Origin: Sialis fuliginosa
Taxonomy: Eukaryota; Arthropoda; Insecta; Megaloptera; Sialidae
Reading direction: 5' to 3'
Length of the DNA: 64,000 nucleotides
Assembly (NCBI GenBank): GCA_961205875.1
Contig: OY540816.1
Span: 14,270,701 to 14,334,700, forward strand
The notes below the pieces were generated by a model. That model was given only the letters and a program-made list of their open reading frames with translations. It was not told the origin of the DNA and made no database searches. Position numbers and translations under genes: made by a program. Below, one piece after another: positions 2,440 through 37,214 of this stretch. Within the stretch, counting starts at the first letter, position 1; each line of letters opens with the position of its first letter.

Positions 2440-5400
2440 ACAGTGGTAACGTGGGTCGGTGTTTCCCGTTGGTGACTCCAGACACTCTGCTGATGACTTC
2501 CAGAGGACGCGTGATGCTCCCGGAGTCCCGCAGGTGTACCGGAGCGACCGCCCGGACCGTCTTCTTGGCCCCAGAGTATAGAACCGGGAAAATCTTCTCG
2601 GACACTGAATGTGAAAAGGTCAGTAGGGAGATAATGGACGTAAAAGTAAACACGAGTGTAGGAAAGTGGTTTAGAAATAGAGCGAATGCATTTACTAAAA
2701 ACGTAGAGTACACAATAACAATATATGGCACCTTGATCGTAACCGTAACGTTGGAATTATAGGTACTGTTTTATATTTTTTTCCAATTCTTAATAGCTAC
2801 TTAAAAAATTTGTGGTAGTACAAATATCTATAATAACCTCGATAACTCTGAAATTTGTCAGTATGTTTACGGGACACCATGTATATAGTATTTTATATCG
2901 TATGTCAATGTGGTATTATTTAAATCATGTAACCCTAATTAAATCAATGGAAACCATTATTGACAATCGCTTTGTTTCGTGATACACATTTTTGATAAAT
3001 TCATTTAATGTGATACAAAAATGTACTCGGTTTTGCGGTACCGATTTGCGCCTCATTATATTTGTTTACACTCATTAAATAGTTTATTAAAATTTTGTAC
3101 CAGCACAGTTTACATAACCAATAATGTCAATTATTAACGTTATTAAATATACTGATCAAATCGATATGCTAATTATTTCAATGTTTTTGTTAACACTGCA
3201 GATTTCGTTTTCGCTTATAGACATTCGTGTGCCTCATTGAACTACTGGTATATTATCGGAAGTGATAAAATTTTAATAATAATAAAGAAAAGCATTTATA
3301 GACCACTACAATTACTAAAATATTTTGTTGATGCAAATCTCGAGGTAATAAAGAATATCTGTACTTTGTACATATAAGAATCATTGTTTGAACAAATTAT
3401 AAATAAAGGCCAAAGTTTCATAAATAACATGTTTTACCTTTCACAACCTAAGTAGCGAGAACTAAGCAATATACGATACAATTTCCCAATACCTTTTTTG
3501 TAGAGCATAAAATTCTCTACAAAATAGTCAGCGAGGGCATATGTATAACTTTATAGTTTAGACGTAAGAAACATCTGAGTGCCCGCGTCAAAACGCCTGT
3601 TTTTCGCGTGACTCGCGAAATACATCGAGCGCATTTGACAATTGAAACAAACAATTTTAAAATTCACGAAAAATTCTGAAAAAATTCTTGTATTATCTAA
3701 ATCGCATATAGAATTTTTTAACATTTATTAGAAACTTTTTCATGCATTCTCAATTTGTAATGAATGTAAGTGTAAAAGTTGTATGTTTTTATTAACTTTC
3801 GTGTATTATAACAACAGTGTGCACTATTAATACTAAATTTTACTTCTTCTATATTTTTGTTTGCTCTATACGATGGAATATCATTTTTTACCTGTTTATA
3901 GTTAATTTTTTTATTTTTCACTTTAAAACTTAGGTGAAAACAAATTTATTTTCTTATAAATAATACAATTTTAGGTAAAAATAACAATGTTCCATCATGT
4001 AGAGCAGACAAAAATATATATGGAAATATGTATAGTATAATATATCAACATTTACATTTTCGTTCATAACAAATCGAAGAATGCATTAAAAACTGGAAAA
4101 TAAATTTTTAATACAAATAATTCTTTTTTTAATTAATCACTCGGAGCTGAACCGAAAACCAAAAAACCGTTATTTTTTCGGAACGAAAACCGGAACCGAA
4201 CCGAAATATATTTTTTTACTCGAACCGGAACGAAAAAAATAACGGTTCGAAGCCCTGATAAAAAATCTTAATGTGAACTATACTAGAAATATAAATAAAA
4301 CATTAGTCATAAGAAATCTCAACACAAGTCTTATTTAATAATAAAAATAAATAATATATAAAAGCATTGATATTAATAATCAAGTATTAACACCAGTAAA
4401 AATAATGAAAGTAGATTTGTAGCAATCGTATGTAAAAAAAAAAAATAATAAAAAACGAGAGGTCCCACCGAGATTTGAACTCGGATCGCTGGATTCAAAG
4501 TCCAGAGTGCTAACCATTACACCATGGGACCGCACGACGCCTGGCTCTAAATAACAATCATATTCGCACCATTTCACTGGTATCTTCGTTACGAACAGGT
4601 TTTCATTTAGAATTTAAGTTTTGTGGGCATACTAAAACACACGACATGTTCACAATCATGGGCGCCGGGAGGGGGGTGCAAGGAGGTGCACTTGCACCCC
4701 CCTGGCAAATTGGAAAACATATAATAAGTTATAAATGTGAAAATATAAAACTGAGGACCTTTTTTTTTTTTTTTAGTCGTGTCAGTTTCAAATTGTATAT
4801 ATATGAAAACTGAAGACCTTTTTTTTTACTGGTATTAACTTCTATGTGGAAGTTATCATTTTCGTAATCAATTTCACACACGTATCTTCGCATATTATTT
4901 TTTTTAATTGTACTTGAAAACCTTACAATCAGTTAAGATAAAGGCACCAGTTAAGGCCGCTATAAGAGCAAGTTTTCGATTTTTTTTTTTATTAATGGGC
5001 TTGTTTTTTGTAATTCTCATGAACTCATGTTACTAATAAAACAAGTAACTCTTTATTTAATCAATTTAATTACCAAAGTCACCAATATAGTTTGTTTTTT
5101 AAATTATAGCCTTTTATTTTGTTTATGTTTTTTCTCCAGTTTTGGATAAAGTAAAACCAGTAATGACAACGCAGTGATGGACACTTGCTAATGATTACAA
5201 AATGATAAGTACTACGACACAAAATATATATAAAAGAATCGTCAAATTTGAAACAATGTAAAGCAGTTGCTATGATAATAGAATAATTAATAAATAAATT
5301 ATACTAATAATTAGTTTAAATGTTCACCATTTTGACACCTATTGGCCGATATTTTATATTTTTTCTGATGGTTCTGCATCTGACATTTTTTTAACACTAA

Positions 5401-29245: not shown

Positions 29246-30562
29246 TTGTGCTTAAGTGTGTACCCGTCTTTGCTGTAATTATGTATATTAGATAAGAATG
29301 TGAGCTTACAAACAAAAAACAGTTCAAAAATCGGCATTTTCGACAATGAAAGATTTAAAGTTCTTCTAAATAATGAAATATACAATAAAATAAATAATGG
29401 AGGGACCAGAGAGTTAAATAATTTTATAACATACTTGAATTATAAAGTAAACTGGGACATTACATAACTTCAATGGTTTTTTAAATAAAAAAATTATTAT
29501 CCTTCTATATACCTGGTACCCTGATATTAGTGGCTGGTGTAAGGGGATCATTATACCCTTTTGATGGCGATATGAGTTAATGTGACGTACGTCTTTTAGG
29601 CAAAAGGCAAATTAAAACATCTTGGTGCCTTTTCAATTGTAAAACTCGCTGATACAAAATCTTGAGCCGCCACTGCCTGATATCCAGTAAAATATTTTAA
29701 TATTTCTTTATGCTATTAAAATATTGTTGAAAAATATGTATTCCCTATGAAACTTAAAAAATTATGAATAGAAAACATAAAATGCCTAAACTGTAAATTG
29801 GTACTAATAATATTATTTGTTGAAATATATGTACACAATAAATAATTATCTGTTTATTTTAGAATATTTAAATGCTTTTACAATTTTTACTAAGTCAATA
29901 TTTTATAACTTATAGGTACTATAGTTATTATTTTTAAAATAACATACATGTAGGTATAATAAAATGTAAATAAATTATTATAGTAATTACTATTACATTT
30001 TTATCATGAAACATTTATTTTTGTAGATGTTTATTTTCAATGATTCAAATGTAGGATTTGTATTTTTTATATTATTATTTCATAATATATTCCATAAACA
30101 GTTTTTTTATGTGTTGAAATAACAATTTTTGTAATGATGTTGTTAAAAGTGTGTAAATAATTACAAAAACATCTATTATGTTTATAAAAATAATTAAGGT
30201 AATTGAGTTAATAATTGTTAAGTAATATTTAGGCCTTTTAATATGACTGAATATTTTTAAGCTAAATTTTAGCTTTATTGTCGTATAATCATTATGTGCT
30301 TTGTACTTTATTTTCATAAACATATATGATGTAGAATAGATAGACGTTTAGAACAATATTTGTTGTATAAAATTGTTTATTTACAATAAAAACGCATATT
30401 AAACATTCGTGTATTAAAAGTTATATTTACATATTTGATTCCCTTGTTTTATTCCTTTTACTATATAACTAACTGGTGGACAAGGTTCGTAAATACTTTA
30501 CCTACACCATGACCATGATACAATTAATATAATATTATTATATATAATAATACAATAAAAAA

Positions 30563-33500
30563 TATTTTTTCAATAAATATCCAATAATACATAGTATGTA
30601 TGTCTCAACAATGACGCCATGTAATAAGTACGTATATAATAAATATTTATAAATAAAAGGTAAGTAATTTTCAATCATACAATACTTTATACCTGTGTAG
30701 ATAAACAGGTAACAAAGAACTAATTAAGAGCATCTATGTAGATAAATAGATGTTTTAAATTCACTTAGTTTTCAGTTTTGAAAGTATAAACGTTATCGTA
30801 TGTAACATACATTATATCAGATTTTAAATTCATTCATTAATACATACGATAACGTCTTCTTTGACAAAAAAAATTGATTTAGTCGGAACGGCATCTGAAA
30901 ATAATATTGAAATTTGAAAGATACATGTGGCTCTATCTAACAAAAATAGTTCGAACTAATATTTTTTGATAGTTCAAATTTGTCCCGCTAGATGGTACCT
31001 ACTATGTACTTTTTAAATTTCAATGTATTTTTCAGATGCCATTCCGACTAAATCATTTTTTTTGCAAGTTAGAGACGCTATCGTAAGTATTAGAGCATCC
31101 TAATTCCAAATATGGCCATAAAAAATTGCACTCGGAATGATAAAACCGTTTTTAATTAACTTTTGTCTAAGAAAAAATGTTAAAATTATGAACCAGTGAA
31201 AGCATTTAAAATCTGATATCATATATGATATCAACAAGTCTTCTTACATACGATGGCGTGCATAATATTTTTAAATTCAAAATGGGTGTATCAATTAAAG
31301 TACTGAAAAACACATCCTTATTGAATTTGAAAATAATGAACATGCCATCGTATGTATTATGACACGCTGATAACATAAATGATAATAGATTTTAAATCAA
31401 TTCACTGGTTCAAAATTTGATGAAATTTTTTAAGACTAAAGTTGATAAAAAACCGTGTTATCGATCCGAGCGCAACTTTTTATGGGCATATTTGGAATCA
31501 GGGTGCCCTAATACATACGATAGCGTCTCTAACTCGCCAAAAAAAAAATTTCCCCAAAAAGAAACAACAATAGTATGGCTTAAAAAACAGTCGAAAAACA
31601 CTTTTTTCGATTTTCAAATAATTAGATACGTTATCGCATGTAAAGGGATACGCTAATTCGACAATTTTTATCTGTTGTGAAATTCATCAAAGGGTTCAAA
31701 AGTTACAGCCAATTTACGACGAAAAATTGATAAAAAACAGTGATAGCGGTCTGAGCGGAATTTTTTATCAATATTTTTGGAATCACCATGCTGTTATACA
31801 TCCGATAGCGTGCCTAACTCGACAAAAAAATTTTAATCTAATGACGGCACCTTCACCATGGTGAAGGTGCCGCCGTGTTACGTCATCAGATAAAAAAAAT
31901 TTTTTGTCGAGTTAGGCACGCTATCGGATGTATAACAGCATGGTGATTCCAAAAATGTTGATAAAAAGTTCCGCTCGAATCTCTCTTACAGTTTTTTATC
32001 AATTTTTCGTCGTAAAATGGCTGTAACTTTTGAATCCTTTGATGAATTTCACAACAGATAAAAATTGTCGAATTAGCGTATCCCTTTACATGCGATAACG
32101 TATCTAATTATTTGAAAATCGAAAAAAGTGTTTTTCGAGTGTTTTTTAAGCCATACTATAGCCTTGTTTCTTTTTGGGAAAAATTTTTTTTTTGGCGAGT
32201 TAGACACGCTATCGTATGTATTAGGGCACCCTGATTCCAAATATGCCCATAAAAAGTTGCGCTCGGATCGATAACATGGTTTTTTATCAAGTTTTCTCTT
32301 AGAAATTTTAGTGAAAATTTGAACCAGTGAATGTATTTAAAATCTGATATCATATATGTTATCAGCGAGTGTTCTTACATACGATAGCGTGTCTATTACT
32401 TTCAAATTCAAAAAGAGTGTATTTTTTAGTACGATAATTAATACATCCATTTTGAATTTGAAAGTAATAGACACCCCATCGTATGTAAGAAGACTCGCTG
32501 ATAACATAAATGATATCAGATTAAAATTCCTTTGTTTGTTAAAAATTTCAAGCAAATTTTTTAGACACATGTTGATAAAAAACAGTTTCATCGGTCCGAG
32601 CGAAACTTTTTATATGCATTTTTGGACTCAGGATGCCATAATACATACGATAACGTCTCTAACACGTTTAAAAAAAATTGACTTAATCGGAATGGCTTCT
32701 GAAAAATAATAATAATTTTTTCAGAAGCCATTCCGACTAAGTAAATTTTTTTAAACGTGTTAGAGACGTTCTCGTATGTATTAGGGCATCCTGAGTCCAA
32801 AAATGTATATAAAAAGTTTCGCTCGGATCGATGAAATTGTTTTTTTTATCAACATTTGTTCAAAAAATTTGCTTGAAATTTTTAACAAACAAAGGCATTT
32901 TAATCTGGTGTTATATATGATATCAGCGTGTCCTTTTACATATGATGGCGTGCATAATATTTTAAAATTCAAAATGGGTGTATCAATTAAAGTACTGAAA
33001 AACACATCCTTATTAAATTTGAAAATAATTAACACGCCATGGTATGTTATTTGACACGCTGATAACATAAATGATAATAGATTTTAAATCAATTCACTGG
33101 TTCAAAATTTGATGAAATTTTTTAAGACAAAACTTGATAAAAAACCATGTTATTGATCCGAGCGCAACTTTTTATGGGCATATTTGGAATCAGGGTGCCC
33201 TAATACATACGATAGCGTCTTTAACTCGCCAAAAAAAAATTTTCCCCAAAAAGAAACAAGGCTATAGTATGGCTTAAAAAACAGTCGAAAAACACTTTTT
33301 TCGATTTTCAAATAATTAGATACGTTATCGCATGTAAAGGGATACGCTAATTCGACAATTTTTATCTGTTGTGAAATTCATCAAAGGGTTCAAAAGTTAT
33401 AGCCATTTTACGACGAAAAATTGATAAAAAACAGTGATAGCGGTTCGAGCGGAATTTTTTATCAATATTTTTGGAATCACCATTCTGTTATTCATACGAT

Positions 33501-34985
33501 AGCGTACCTAACTCGACAAAAAAAAATTTATCTGATGACGTAACATGACGGCACCTCTACCATATATACGGAATAAAATATTTTTTGATATTTTTGTATT
33601 CCTTATTCAAAAATAAGATATATATAGTATTTTTGTACTTTTTTATATATGGTGGAGGTGCTGTCATGTTACGTCATCAGATAATTTTTTTTTGTCGAGT
33701 TACGCACGCTATCGTATGTATAACAGCATGGTGATTCCAAAAATGTTGATAAAAAATTCCGCTCGAACCGCTATCACTGTTTTTTATCAATTTTTCGTCG
33801 TAAAATGGCTATAACTTTTGAACCCTTTGATGAATTTCGCAATTGATAAAAATTGTCGAATTAGCGTGTCCCTTTACATGCGATAACGTATCTAATTATT
33901 TGAAAATCGAAAAAAGTATTTTTCGACTGTTTTTTAAGCCATACTATAGCCTTGTTTCGTTTTGGAAAAAAATTTTTTTTGGCGAGTTAGAGACGCTATC
34001 GTATGTATTAGGGCACCCTGATTCCAAATATGCCCATAAAAAGTTGCGCTCGGATCGATAACATGGTTTTTTATCAAGTTTTGTCTTAGAAATTTTAGTG
34101 AAAATTTGAACCAGTGAATGTATTTAAAATCTGATATAATATATGTTATCAGCGTGTCATAATACATACGATGGCGTGTTTATTACTTTCAAATTCAAAA
34201 AGAGTATGTTTTTTGGTACGATAATTAATACATCTATTTTAAATTTGAAAGTAATAAACACCCCATCGTATGTAAGAAGACTCGCTGATAACATATATGA
34301 TATCAGATTTTCAATGCTTTCACATAATTTTTTCTCATAATTTTAACATTTTTTTTAGACAAAAGTTGATGAAAAATGGTTTTATCGTTCTGAGTGCAAT
34401 TTTTTATGGGCATATTTTTAATTAGGATGCTCTAATACATACGATAGCGTCTCTAACTTGCAAAAAAAATGATTTAGTCGGAATGGCATCTGAAAAATAC
34501 ATTGAAATTTAAAAAGTACATGTAGTACCATCTAGTAGGACAAACATGAACTATCAAAAACTTATTAGTTCAAGTAGTTTTTGCTAGATGGCGCTACATG
34601 TACCTTTAAAATTTCAATATTATTTTCAGATGCCGTTCCGACTAATCATTTTTTTTGACAAAGACGTTATCGTATGTATTAATGAATGAATTTTAAATCT
34701 GGTGCAATATATGTTATCAGTGTTTCCTCTTACATACGATGACATGTATACTTTCAAAACTATAAAAACTGAGTGAATTTAAAGCATCTATTTATCTACA
34801 TAGATGCTCATAATTAGTTCTTTGTTACCTGTTTATCTACACAGGTATAAAATATTGTACAATTGAAATTACTTACCTTTTATTTATAAATATTTATTAT
34901 ATACTTACTTATTAAATGGCATCATTGTTGAGACATAGATACTATGTATTATTGATGCACCTATTGATTATTTATTGAAAAATTA
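30563..34985. repeat. 4.4-kb nested palindrome (self-similar foldback element)
   Basis: The two halves, 30563-32711 and 32712-34985, are inverted copies. For example, ACCTGTGTAGATAAACAGGT at 30691 is mirrored at 34827-34846, and CGGAATGGCTTCTGA at 32688 is mirrored at 32721-32735. Each half contains its own palindrome: the left centred at 31860.5 (CACCATGGTG), the right at 33605.5. Those arms contain smaller hairpins centred near 31300, 32425, 32990 and 34215, plus outer ones near 30955 and 34560. The word TACATACGATAGCGT or close variants recurs about 26 times in alternating orientation at hairpin bases. The right half carries roughly 90 extra bases at its inner centre, a loop of low-complexity TTTTTGT. 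No protein is supported; open frames here mirror each other. It could be a foldback transposon or a long-hairpin RNA locus. Confidence 0.9.
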
Positions 34986-35306
34986 CTTTTAATAAAAAAA
35001 TAAAATAAAACAGATCACCTTGGGATTCAAACACTGAACCTCTTTTTAATAAGGTCTCTTATTTTGATTCAATATTTTACTGGTTTAAAGAGCCGACAGA
35101 ATTCTTTTTCGCAATTTTCTCTATCTTTTGAGTGAATCAATAGTTTGTTGACATTGAGTAATCTACGCCTGATACTTGTACACACTAGACATCATCTATT
35201 ACTGTGCTCAAAATTACTCAAATGAAATCAATTTTTAATAAATGAATGAATATTGTTTGCTACACTCAAACGTCAAACAGGATTTTGACAGCTAGCATCA
35301 AAATAG

Positions 35307-35372
35307 GTCACGTGACAGGATTTGGCGCTAGCGTCTAGCGTCACATGAAAAGGCACCCACATTGGGCGGGAA
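35307..35372 (+). promoter_or_regulatory. RNASEH2A promoter: E-box and two E2F-like sites
   Basis: Within 130 bases upstream of the RNASEH2A start are three sites: the palindrome GTCACGTGAC (35307-35316), a canonical E2F word TTTGGCGC (35321-35328), and GGGCGGGAA (35364-35372), whose complement TTCCCGCCC is a second E2F-type site. ATCGAT-like DREF half sequence AATCGATTT follows. E2F control would fit an S-phase DNA repair gene. Function is inferred from motifs only. Confidence 0.6.
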
Positions 35373-35432
35373 GAAATCGATTTAAAAATTCTACTGTGAT
35401 TCTAACCTCTATAAAATTGTCAAACGTTAATC

Positions 35433-37214
35433 ATGGATTCGATGGATTCTTTAGAAAAAATGAATCCTTATTTATCTGAACAAAATAATTCGCAAAACTT
35501 TACTTATATGTCACCTATACCTGAAATATGTAAGAAGGAAGAATGCATTTTAGGTGTTGATGAAGCCGGGAGAGGACCAGTTCTAGGTAAAATTAAAACC
35601 TGTTATTTATTATTCGAATACAAATATAGTTTTAATGGTTTTTCAGGACCTATGGTATATGGTATAGCTTATATTCCTAAATCTAAAGTAGAGGTATTAA
35701 AAACAAATGGTTGCGTTGATTCAAAAGCACTTGATGAAGCTAAACGAGATGTTGTATTTTCAAAAATATGTGATACCTGTGATTGCCTTGGATGGGCAGT
35801 AGAAGTAAATGCGCTTTGTATTATATTAATGTTTTTTGTATTAATTTATTATGTTTTAATAGGTTATTTCACCAAATATAATATGTCAAAGTATGCTTTC
35901 TCGAACTAAAAGATCTTTGAACGTTGTTTCAATGGATTCAGCGATTGATCTTATAAAAAACACTCTTGCAGCAGAAGTGAATGTAACCGAAATTTATGTT
36001 GATACAGTAAGTGTGATGAAATTAAATCCGTACCTATTTCAATCAATAATTAATTCTTTTGTGTCAGGTTGGACCACCAGAAAAATATCAAGCTTACTTA
36101 TCAGATATATTTCCAAATATTAAAATAACTGTAGCAAAGAAAGCTGACTCTACATATCCTATAGTATCAGCTGCAAGTATCTGTGCAAAAGTCACAAGAG
36201 ATCATATGTTGCAAGTTTGGAAGTTTAGAGAGGGCTTAGAAGCTACACACAAAGATTTTGGAAGTGGTTATCCTGGCGGTAATTTTTTTTATATTCAATA
36301 GTTATTTATATCCACAGAATAATTTATATCTAAGTTCTGTTAGAATTATATATTATTGTTAGTTAATTGTATTATGTTTTATTACAAAAGCTAAATAAAA
36401 CTGATTTTTTAACACAAAAAAAGCCAGTACATTCTTGTACAAATGAACGTATTGCATTGGTGATTTCAAATTGTATATATGTCAATCTAACAACATATTC
36501 ACTTTAGAGCAAATAAAATAATGGGAGTACGGGAGTGGTAACAAACAACAATGAAAAGAGAAAAGAACGTACTGAGTTGCTCCTATTCAATCTATATGTT
36601 TTAATTTTTGTCATAATTAACATCATCAAAGCTGGTTAGGTAAAGAGATTTTGGTACAACATTGAGTTACCAGTTTGCTCCAGTTATATTTTATCTCAAT
36701 GCTTTATTAGTAGACAAATTTAAATTAATCGGTATAGTAGACAGTAGAGAACTATTGTATGAAAAAACAATAGCCTTTCAAGAAAATAGCTGCATGCTCT
36801 GTCACCAGTGGAATAAAATGCTTATTGCCAAAAAAATCAAATAAAGTAAAAATATTATATTTTCTTATTTCTTTTAATTAATAATAATAATTTCATTATT
36901 ACAGTAATTTATCTTAAAATTAAAATTAAAATTTTATCACTACTTTTTCAGATCCAGTTACGAAGAAATTTATTTTAAATAACATAGATCAAGTATTTGG
37001 TTTTCCACAACTTGTTAGATTCAGTTGGTCAACTGCTGACAAATTACTTGATGAAAAAGCTTGTAGTGTTGATTGGTCCGATGATGAAAATGAAAAATCT
37101 AATCCAAAATCACAAAAAATGACCACATTTTTTCCTGTTAATGGTGTAAAGAAACCTAAACATTTATTTTTTTCACAAAGAAATTTACAAAATACAGCAT
37201 CTATTTGTGAATAA
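35433..37214 (+). CDS. RNASEH2A: Ribonuclease H2 subunit A
   Basis: Five exons (35433-35586, 35647-35804, 35863-36006, 36068-36278, 36952-37214) join in phase to 309 residues; human RNASEH2A has 299. It is the catalytic subunit of nuclear RNase H2, which cleaves at single ribonucleotides in DNA and in RNA:DNA hybrids, normally with subunits B and C. The motif [14 protein letters not shown] gives Asp43 and Glu44. [12 protein letters not shown] gives Asp151. [22 protein letters not shown] gives Asp179, completing the DEDD active site. SGYPGDP is also conserved. The chosen ATG lies 60 bases after the E2F-like GGCGGGAA, and Met4 or Met10 are alternatives. Intron 4 (673 bases) holds no recognised element. 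The tail [11 protein letters not shown] (residues 274-284) resembles a PCNA-interacting peptide with Ser in place of the leading Gln. ATTAAA at 37305 may be the poly(A) signal. Confidence 0.97.

What the first reader, a model, noticed from the sequence alone, without database searches (positions are those of the whole stretch)
30563..34985. Self-similar 4.4-kb palindrome: palindromes within palindromes at three scales
Seen directly: the whole element is an inverted repeat centred near 32711. Each half is again an inverted repeat (centres 31860.5 and 33605.5), and each quarter contains short hairpins (near 31300, 32425, 32990, 34215). A TACATACGATRRCGT word sits at hairpin bases in alternating orientation about 26 times. 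Inference: it grew by repeated inverted duplication of a roughly 100-170 bp unit, either as a foldback transposon or by replication template switching. A transcript across it would make kilobase-long double-stranded RNA, a natural substrate for Dicer-2 (an hpRNA/endo-siRNA locus). I know of no named element with this three-level layout.
Basis: partly seen in the sequence, partly recalled or inferred. Interest (0 to 1): 0.8.

Follow-up and report, generated by a model that had tools for sequence, protein, structure and literature searches.

The report
Foldback Harbinger transposon with tandem palindromes
The nested palindrome is one of very roughly a hundred or more copies of a cut-and-paste transposon family whose body is an inverted repeat, and its fractal look comes from a palindromic block present one to three times in a row; there is no clear sign so far that it makes a useful RNA.

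Summary
The element holds 28 copies of the 15-bp word in strictly alternating orientation, marking 14 related units, twelve of them 184-191 bp. It is not a one-off: the genome has 883 matches to a 25-bp word-plus-flank pattern (reversed control 0), very roughly 110-200 copies. Of 38 copies laid out, 21 have one whole palindromic cell, 10 two (the window), 3 three, 4 none. Better-preserved copies run outward into a decayed PIF/Harbinger transposase in both arms and end in GGGTGCC... repeats; in 6 of 8 copies with both ends seen, TAA or TTA flanks both ends. So this is a non-autonomous, foldback-shaped PIF/Harbinger transposon. Arms of one copy are more alike (96.5%) than arms of different copies (91.7%), unevenly along their length, which suggests arm-to-arm conversion. 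How cells multiply is open: the window's halves match better as direct repeats (93.5% against 89.5%), but 11 of 13 multi-cell copies favour inverted pairs. Arm differences show no significant RNA-pairing bias. The window copy has lost its left end.

The parts
30535..35358 (.). Whole element as it survives here: non-autonomous foldback PIF/Harbinger transposon, two-cell copy, left terminus lost
   Evidence: arm mapping; layout
35338..35358 (-). Right terminal inverted repeat GGGTGCCTTTTCATGTGACGC; the only match in the window at up to 4 mismatches
   Evidence: same ends in other copies
35041..35358 (-). Terminal part of the right outer arm (reference arm -1631 to -1297); the part that carries most of the transposase remnant in longer copies is deleted here
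   Evidence: 90% match
34958..35040 (-). Inner part of the right outer arm (reference arm -102 to 0)
30535..30583 (+). Stub of the left outer arm (reference arm -56 to 0); no terminal repeat found to its left
30583..30789 (+). Block E, left end of the palindromic core
34746..34957 (-). Block E', right end of the core, inverted
30790..30855 (-). Unit t, internally deleted (66 bp); orientation uncertain
30856..31074 (+). Spacer Sx, itself an inverted repeat
31075..31259 (+). Unit C (185 bp)
31342..31526 (-). Unit A (185 bp)
31628..31811 (-). Unit B (184 bp)
31797..31932 (.). Centre of palindromic cell 1 (31860.5); short form, word-to-word spacing 121 (cell 2 has 215)
   Evidence: spacings in other copies
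31918..32101 (+). Unit B
32206..32390 (+). Unit A
32473..32656 (-). Unit D
32642..32780 (.). Junction between the two cells (centre 32711); resembles Sx' without its middle part
32766..32951 (+). Unit D
33034..33218 (-). Unit A
33322..33505 (-). Unit B
33491..33720 (.). Centre of palindromic cell 2 (33605.5), AT-rich loop kept
33706..33889 (+). Unit B
33993..34177 (+). Unit A
34260..34450 (-). Unit C (191 bp)
34451..34663 (-). Spacer Sx'
34664..34745 (-). Unit t', internally deleted (82 bp); orientation uncertain

Best explanation
It is a damaged two-cell copy of a non-autonomous DNA transposon family of the PIF/Harbinger superfamily with a foldback body. A complete copy reads: terminal repeat; about 1.6 kb with a decayed transposase gene pointing inward; core; the same in reverse; terminal repeat; with a 3-bp TAA/TTA target-site duplication. 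The core holds up to three palindromic cells built of ~185-bp units delimited by an alternating 15-bp word. Shown here: layout, copies, terminal repeats, duplications, transposase remnant, variation in cell number, uneven homogenisation of arms. Inferred: copies were moved in trans by a PIF/Harbinger transposase acting on the terminal repeats; arms are kept alike by gene conversion, possibly through cruciform or foldback repair; cells were gained and lost by unequal exchange or slippage, perhaps also by inverted duplication (left open); the words may be extra transposase-binding sites. The three-level self-similarity follows because a row of palindromic cells is itself a palindrome.
For: Same kind of array in 37 further copies of the own genome and in 6 others that I picked from the listed exact pattern matches. 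Pattern search 449 + 434 matches at up to 2 mismatches, reversed control 0. DDE_Tnp_4 matches above the Pfam cut-off inside two arms (C6:16870388 and C6:19922435); further transposase-like pieces read inward in order in L018 (named beyond the Pfam match from recall). Terminal repeats at both ends of 8 copies; matching TAA or TTA in 6 of 8, two of them (L012, L030) depending on where a damaged end is placed. Cell number among 38 copies: 4 with no whole cell centre, 21 with one, 10 with two, 3 with three. Word alternation 812 of 837 adjacent non-overlapping pairs in 44 loci; unit spacing 169-170 in 329 of 419. Core arms (57 taken from 38 copies; 23 copies gave both): same-copy 0.965 against 0.917 between copies, own other arm nearest in 16 of 23, left-left/right-right equal to left-right (0.917 and 0.917). 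Uneven arm identity, e.g. L010 97.8%, 99.5%, 90.7% in successive stretches.
Against: The window copy has no left terminal repeat, so its own target-site duplication cannot be tested. Many copies have ragged outer arms ending at scattered points, and only 28 terminal-repeat matches with up to 1 mismatch exist for perhaps 110-200 copies, so most copies lack a recognisable pair of ends. L010 and L028 do not show matching duplications. No intact partner transposase was found: the 48 matches to the N-terminal fragment lie in frames of at most 133 aa, but a search with a catalytic-domain fragment did not complete (and repeats). The similarity of the word region to the terminal repeat is weak (0.96% of 5000 shuffles score as high, with the word version chosen by me). 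The window copy does not show arm homogenisation (its other arm ranks 40th). Direct and inverted comparisons disagree between the window and most other multi-cell copies, so the mode of growth is not settled.
Confidence: 0.85

Rival explanations
1. It is a hairpin-RNA (endo-siRNA) locus: a transcript across it folds into long double-stranded RNA that Dicer-2 cuts, and the pairing is what is kept.
For: RNA of 31196-32529 folds into one long hairpin of -883.5 kcal/mol (no shuffles at that length). Longer copies carry inverted transposase remnants, as in maize Mu killer. In the window alone, arm differences lean towards G-U pairs on the plus strand: 65 against 46, p = 0.087.
Against: Copy by copy there is no excess in either direction (chi-square 21.8, 22 degrees of freedom, p = 0.47); summed over 23 copies 255 against 257, a sum that would hide opposite transcription directions. 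461 of 973 arm differences are transversions, which break pairs on either strand. The window copy lost most of the transposase part. No RNA data were available.
Confidence: 0.09
2. Rounds of inverted duplication made the larger cores, as the first reader proposed (foldback growth or template switching at each level).
For: Units alternate in orientation and the cell is itself a palindrome, so inversions happened at the lowest level. In 11 of 13 multi-cell copies the inverted A and B unit pairs are on average closer than the same-orientation pairs.
Against: The two window halves are closer as direct copies (85 differences in 1316) than as inverted ones (139 in 1324); A 31342/33034 (0.95) and A 32206/33993 (0.96) are same-orientation pairs, against 0.88 to 0.91 for inverted A pairs. 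Three copies have three cells, whereas doubling gives one, two, four. Arm conversion would also make inverted pairs closer, so one search does not decide.
Confidence: 0.3
3. Arms of one copy are alike not through gene conversion but because each copy was made palindromic anew, by foldback synthesis, when it was inserted.
For: Some copies have arms identical over more than 1.2 kb (L014, 1246 of 1246 columns).
Against: Arm identity within a copy is uneven: L028 98.7%, 91.5%, 97.1%; L010 97.8%, 99.5%, 90.7%, where one event should give one level. Part of the low values comes from loops at centres (e.g. 22 of 31 mismatches of the last L028 stretch lie in its last bin), and exchange between copies could also give patches. 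The same design occurs in L057, whose arms are only 72-84% alike to the main family.
Confidence: 0.2
4. One-off rearrangement or assembly artefact.
For: Palindromes are hard to assemble.
Against: Many copies with different flanks, different cell numbers and diverged arms.
Confidence: 0.02

Closest known systems
Galileo (P superfamily) and Foldback elements of Drosophila
   Same: [quoted passage not shown] non-autonomous two-arm copies; exchange between copies (PMC3573991, abstract and section 7 read); repeated transposase-binding sites inside the long repeats (PMC3688188, abstract read).
   Different: Other superfamily: here DDE_Tnp_4 remnant and 3-bp TAA/TTA duplications. Here the units alternate in orientation, so each cell is a palindrome, and a transposase remnant sits in both arms of the longer copies.
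Tetris, foldback transposon of Drosophila virilis
   Same: Modular foldback body, ~220-bp repeats inside the arms with variable number, a 37-bp stretch shared by the repeat and the terminal domain, unequal crossing-over proposed (PMC4079207, abstract and section 19 read).
   Different: Its repeats are described as tandem within the arm; here they alternate in orientation. No Harbinger transposase remnant is described in the parts read.
Mu killer of maize
   Same: Inverted duplication of part of a transposase gene between two copies of one terminal repeat (PMC3440606, start of abstract and passages read).
   Different: Mu killer is a single locus shown to silence MuDR; this is a dispersed family with an extra palindromic core and no RNA evidence.
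PIF/Harbinger elements and their MITEs
   Same: Transposase domain, TAA/TTA duplications, short terminal repeats.
   Different: Ordinary members have a unique body between short terminal repeats (recalled; a midge survey reports 84-bp repeats, PMC8504770, passages read); here the full copies measured, 4.7 to 11 kb, are inverted repeats nearly from end to end.

Membership tests
PIF/Harbinger superfamily | DDE_Tnp_4 type transposase | tested here: met
   Degenerate fragments inside arms of L018 and L021, above the Pfam cut-off; ordered pieces in the L018 arm. Not in the window copy, where that part is deleted.
PIF/Harbinger superfamily | 3-bp TWA target-site duplication | tested here: met
   6 of 8 copies with both ends seen (with for L012 and L030); L010 and L028 fail; not testable for the window copy.
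PIF/Harbinger superfamily | Terminal inverted repeats at both ends | tested here: met
   8 copies with both ends seen; the window copy has only the right one.
PIF/Harbinger superfamily | Second gene for a Myb/SANT-like protein (in autonomous members; recalled) | not tested
   No search was made for it; the copies studied are non-autonomous.
Foldback (FB-like) elements | Long terminal inverted repeats making up most of the element | tested here: met
   Self-comparison: L018, L032, L010 and L028 are palindromic nearly from end to end, apart from deletions in one arm.
Foldback (FB-like) elements | Internal repeats of variable number in the arms | tested here: met
   0-3 whole palindromic cells in 38 copies.
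Foldback (FB-like) elements | Common descent with FB or Galileo (P-like transposase in Galileo, longer duplications; the lengths recalled) | tested here: not met
   Transposase remnant is DDE_Tnp_4 and duplications are 3 bp. It works like a foldback element but is not filed as a relative of FB.
hpRNA / endo-siRNA locus | Transcript folding into a long hairpin | tested here: inconclusive
   A transcript could fold so; transcription not testable here.
hpRNA / endo-siRNA locus | Phased 21-22 nt small RNAs | not testable with these tools
   No RNA libraries.
hpRNA / endo-siRNA locus | Arm changes biased to keep RNA pairing | tested here: inconclusive
   No copy-wise bias over 23 copies (p = 0.47); the window alone leans that way, 65 against 46, p = 0.087.

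The most novel reading that the evidence does not exclude
The family is a self-spreading 'Mu killer': a transposon whose full copies carry their transposase gene as an inverted duplication around a long palindromic spacer, so that any read-through transcript makes double-stranded RNA against the autonomous partner. Spreading copies would then have silenced and extinguished the parent, which fits the failure to find an intact close partner transposase in this assembly.
Probability: 0.1. Interest if true: 0.85.

Novelty: new variant of a known kind. Interest (0 to 1): 0.5.

Why it matters
It extends the foldback body plan to the PIF/Harbinger superfamily; my literature searches listed no such element (titles and starts of abstracts seen). 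It gives a natural series of giant palindromes (4.7 to 11 kb in the full copies measured) with one, two or three cells at many sites of one genome. That series could test how chromosomal palindromes grow, shrink and keep their arms alike. It also shows how an apparently fractal sequence can arise from a row of palindromic cells.

Tried and rejected
RNA pairing: no copy-wise bias. Rfam: only a tRNA elsewhere in the window. Viral contigs: one pattern, 0 matches. Element ends at block E: rejected when flanks of copies proved homologous further out. Special constraint on the 185-bp unit: dropped, because two spacer classes are as constant (97 in 115 cases, 118-119 in 99 cases). Origin of block E from the Y-Y spacer: no support (score 20, below the best of 500 shuffles, 32). 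Intact autonomous partner: none of the 28 terminal-repeat matches lies within 10 kb of a DDE_Tnp_4 match in the list (146 matches, 150 of 189 candidates scored), except those of L018 and L021 by their own degenerate arms; compared by eye. The exact word in full-text papers: 0 papers. Species: not identified; TTAGG repeats near the end of C1 suggest an arthropod (that link is recalled). I also raised the hairpin-RNA rival from 0.07 to 0.09 because the window's own lean (65 against 46) had been left out.
Full report
What was checked. The window stretch 30563-34985 contains 28 copies of TACATACGATRRCGT at up to 2 mismatches, 14 on each strand, in strict alternation; the rest of the window has 8 matches, each with 3 mismatches. 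The words delimit 14 units: twelve of 184-191 bp and two short ones of 66 and 82 bp at the outside, which look like internally deleted units. The twelve fall into types A, B, C, D, 63-84% alike across types and 88-96% within types. In order and orientation they read t' C A' B' B A D' D A' B' B A C' t' (the orientation of the short t units is uncertain). Most spacers between units are themselves inverted repeats; self-match to the reverse complement ranges from 0.54 to 0.91 over 13 spacers.

Copies elsewhere. The window lies in a 392-Mb assembly of 20 contigs. A search with the left 938 bases gave 570 matches (40 of 385 candidates scored). I fetched 37 further copies and laid out their units. 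A common core, about 2.7 kb, is E t Sx C A' B' B A C' Sx' t' E', one palindromic cell. Among 38 copies including the window, 21 have one whole cell centre, 10 have two, 3 have three and 4 have none. The period per cell in the window is about 1.79 kb (unit A 32206 to unit A 33993). A pattern of the word plus ten neighbouring bases has 449 + 434 matches at up to 2 mismatches, and none for the reversed control. With 8.0 matches per copy in the 38 and 4.5 in six others, this means very roughly 110-200 copies. Those six, picked by me from the listed exact matches, all have the same kind of array in varied arrangements. Over these 44 loci adjacent words point opposite ways in 812 of 837 cases, with words at up to 3 mismatches and self-overlaps removed.

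What kind of element. Homology between copies continues beyond block E on both sides. With the arm of L010 as a reference, copies can be followed outward for about 1635 bases to a terminal repeat GGGTGCCTTTTCATGTGACGCTAGACGC. Inside the arm lie pieces of a PIF/Harbinger transposase pointing inward; the Pfam model DDE_Tnp_4 rings above its cut-off in one arm each of L018 and L021, and further pieces can be read in order in L018 (recognised from recall). In eight copies I saw terminal repeats at both ends. Six of these have the same 3 bases, TAA or TTA, on both sides: L018, L021, L032 and L057 clearly, L012 and L030 if a damaged end is placed as; L010 and L028 do not. Self-comparison shows L018, L032, L010 and L028 to be inverted repeats nearly from end to end, apart from deletions in one arm, 4.7 to 11 kb. 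L057, whose arms are only 72-84% alike to L018's arm while its core units match the window's at about 80-96%, has the same design and TAA on both sides.

The window copy. Its right arm keeps the terminal repeat (35338-35358) and the outermost 318 bases, but the next 1.2 kb, with most of the transposase part, is deleted; its left arm stops about 48 bases outside block E and no terminal repeat lies further left in the window. Its own insertion footprint can therefore not be tested. Its left and right core arms are only 91% alike and sit on different branches: the left is nearest to L009R, the right to L028L. It looks like a recombinant between two family members, or an old copy.

How the nested look arose. 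In the window the two halves of the core agree better in the same orientation (93.5%, 85 differences in 1316) than when one is inverted (89.5%, 139 in 1324); inverted arms inside each half agree at 88-90%. That fits a direct tandem duplication, an exchange between two copies in register, or conversion between direct repeats. But among 13 multi-cell copies, the mean identity of same-orientation A and B pairs exceeds that of inverted pairs in only 2 (the window and L034); in 11 the inverted pairs are closer, by 0.1 to 2.7 points (Wilcoxon p = 0.057; the layouts may mix D with A units). This can mean inverted duplication, or arm conversion that overwrote the history. Three copies have three cells, which plain doubling does not give. 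So the mode of growth is open. In any case each cell is a palindrome, and a row of palindromic cells is again a palindrome, which gives the three levels. The junction between the two cells resembles the outer spacer Sx' without its middle. How the basic cell arose is not shown.

Upkeep of the arms. 57 core arms could be cut out of the 38 copies, and 23 copies gave both. Their arms are on average 96.5% alike, arms of different copies 91.7%, and the own other arm is the nearest relative in 16 of 23. Left-left and right-right pairs are no closer than left-right pairs (0.917 and 0.917), so there is no fixed left or right type. Identity along the arms is uneven, for example 97.8%, 99.5% and 90.7% in successive stretches of L010 (Fisher p = 2e-4 and 2e-31), and 98.7%, 91.5% and 97.1% in L028; some of the low bins are loops at centres. 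Patchy gene conversion between arms is my preferred reading; renewed palindrome formation and exchange between copies are rivals. Seven of 23 copies, the window among them, do not have their own arm as nearest.

RNA. One half of the core would fold as RNA into a single hairpin of -883.5 kcal/mol (no shuffle control at that length). If such pairing were selected, arm differences should favour changes that leave a G-U pair on the transcribed strand. Copy by copy they do not (chi-square 21.8 with 22 degrees of freedom, p = 0.47); the sum over copies, 255 against 257, says little, since copies could be transcribed in either direction. The window alone leans to the plus strand, 65 against 46 over whole arms (p = 0.087). 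This does not exclude transcription or an RNA role; it gives no clear sign of one.

Partner. The N-terminal fragment of the transposase has 48 matches in the genome, all in frames of at most 133 aa. A search with a catalytic-domain fragment did not complete. None of the 28 close matches to the terminal repeat lies within 10 kb of a DDE_Tnp_4 match, apart from those of L018 and L021 by their own decayed arms. An autonomous partner is therefore missing from this assembly, or its ends have diverged, or the searches missed it. The 15-bp word and its flank resemble the terminal repeat weakly; in Galileo, repeats inside the long ends carry extra binding sites (PMC3688188, abstract), which is the model for the proposed role of the word.

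Literature. Searches for foldback, palindromic and Harbinger elements listed Galileo, Tetris, Tm1, MuTAnT and others but no foldback PIF/Harbinger element in the titles and starts of abstracts shown. Mu killer is the known case of an inverted duplication of a transposase gene between like ends (PMC3440606, passages). Repbase was not available, so a database-only name cannot be excluded.

Noticed in passing
window 35338-35433: The surviving right end of the element lies about 75 bases upstream of the first ATG of a frame matching RNase HII (PF01351; probably RNase H2 subunit A), so the element may sit in that gene's promoter or 5' leader.
   Followed up: partly
G000 contigs C1-C9 (one search list): Exact matches to the 25-bp word pattern are very uneven: 5, 0, 1, 5 and 2 on C1-C5 but 16, 15, 19 and 28 on C6-C9, although C1 and C3-C5 are longer than C6-C9 (length of C2 not seen); the list of 100 is cut off in C10.
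   Followed up: no
G000 C13: 11 of the 38 laid-out copies lie on C13, a 17.9-Mb contig (4.6% of the assembly); possibly a special chromosome or a local subfamily. The set is biased to near relatives of the window copy.
   Followed up: no
G000 C14:48546 and C14:62310 (L072, L073): Two terminal repeats in opposite orientation with the same outer flank gacatttttttgtaa, which suggests an inverted segmental duplication containing an element end.
   Followed up: no
G000 C14: Many of the 146 DDE_Tnp_4 matches lie on C14 (not counted); it may be a repeat-rich chromosome.
   Followed up: no
window 31797-31932: The left cell centre is a 26-bp perfect palindrome (GGCACCTTCACCATGGTGAAGGTGCC); many copies have a longer centre with a loop (word spacing 217-218 in 29 cases), so a loop was probably lost here.
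   Followed up: partly
window 30690-30760 and 34770-34850: Block E carries two small hairpins sharing the motif GTAGATAAA (ACCTGTGTAGATAAACAGGT and CATCTATGTAGATAAATAGATG).
   Followed up: no
window 4459-4531: tRNA-Gln gene (TTG anticodon) on the minus strand.
   Followed up: no
G000 C1 interior: Besides the array near the end of C1, short TTAGG arrays occur at several interior places.
   Followed up: no
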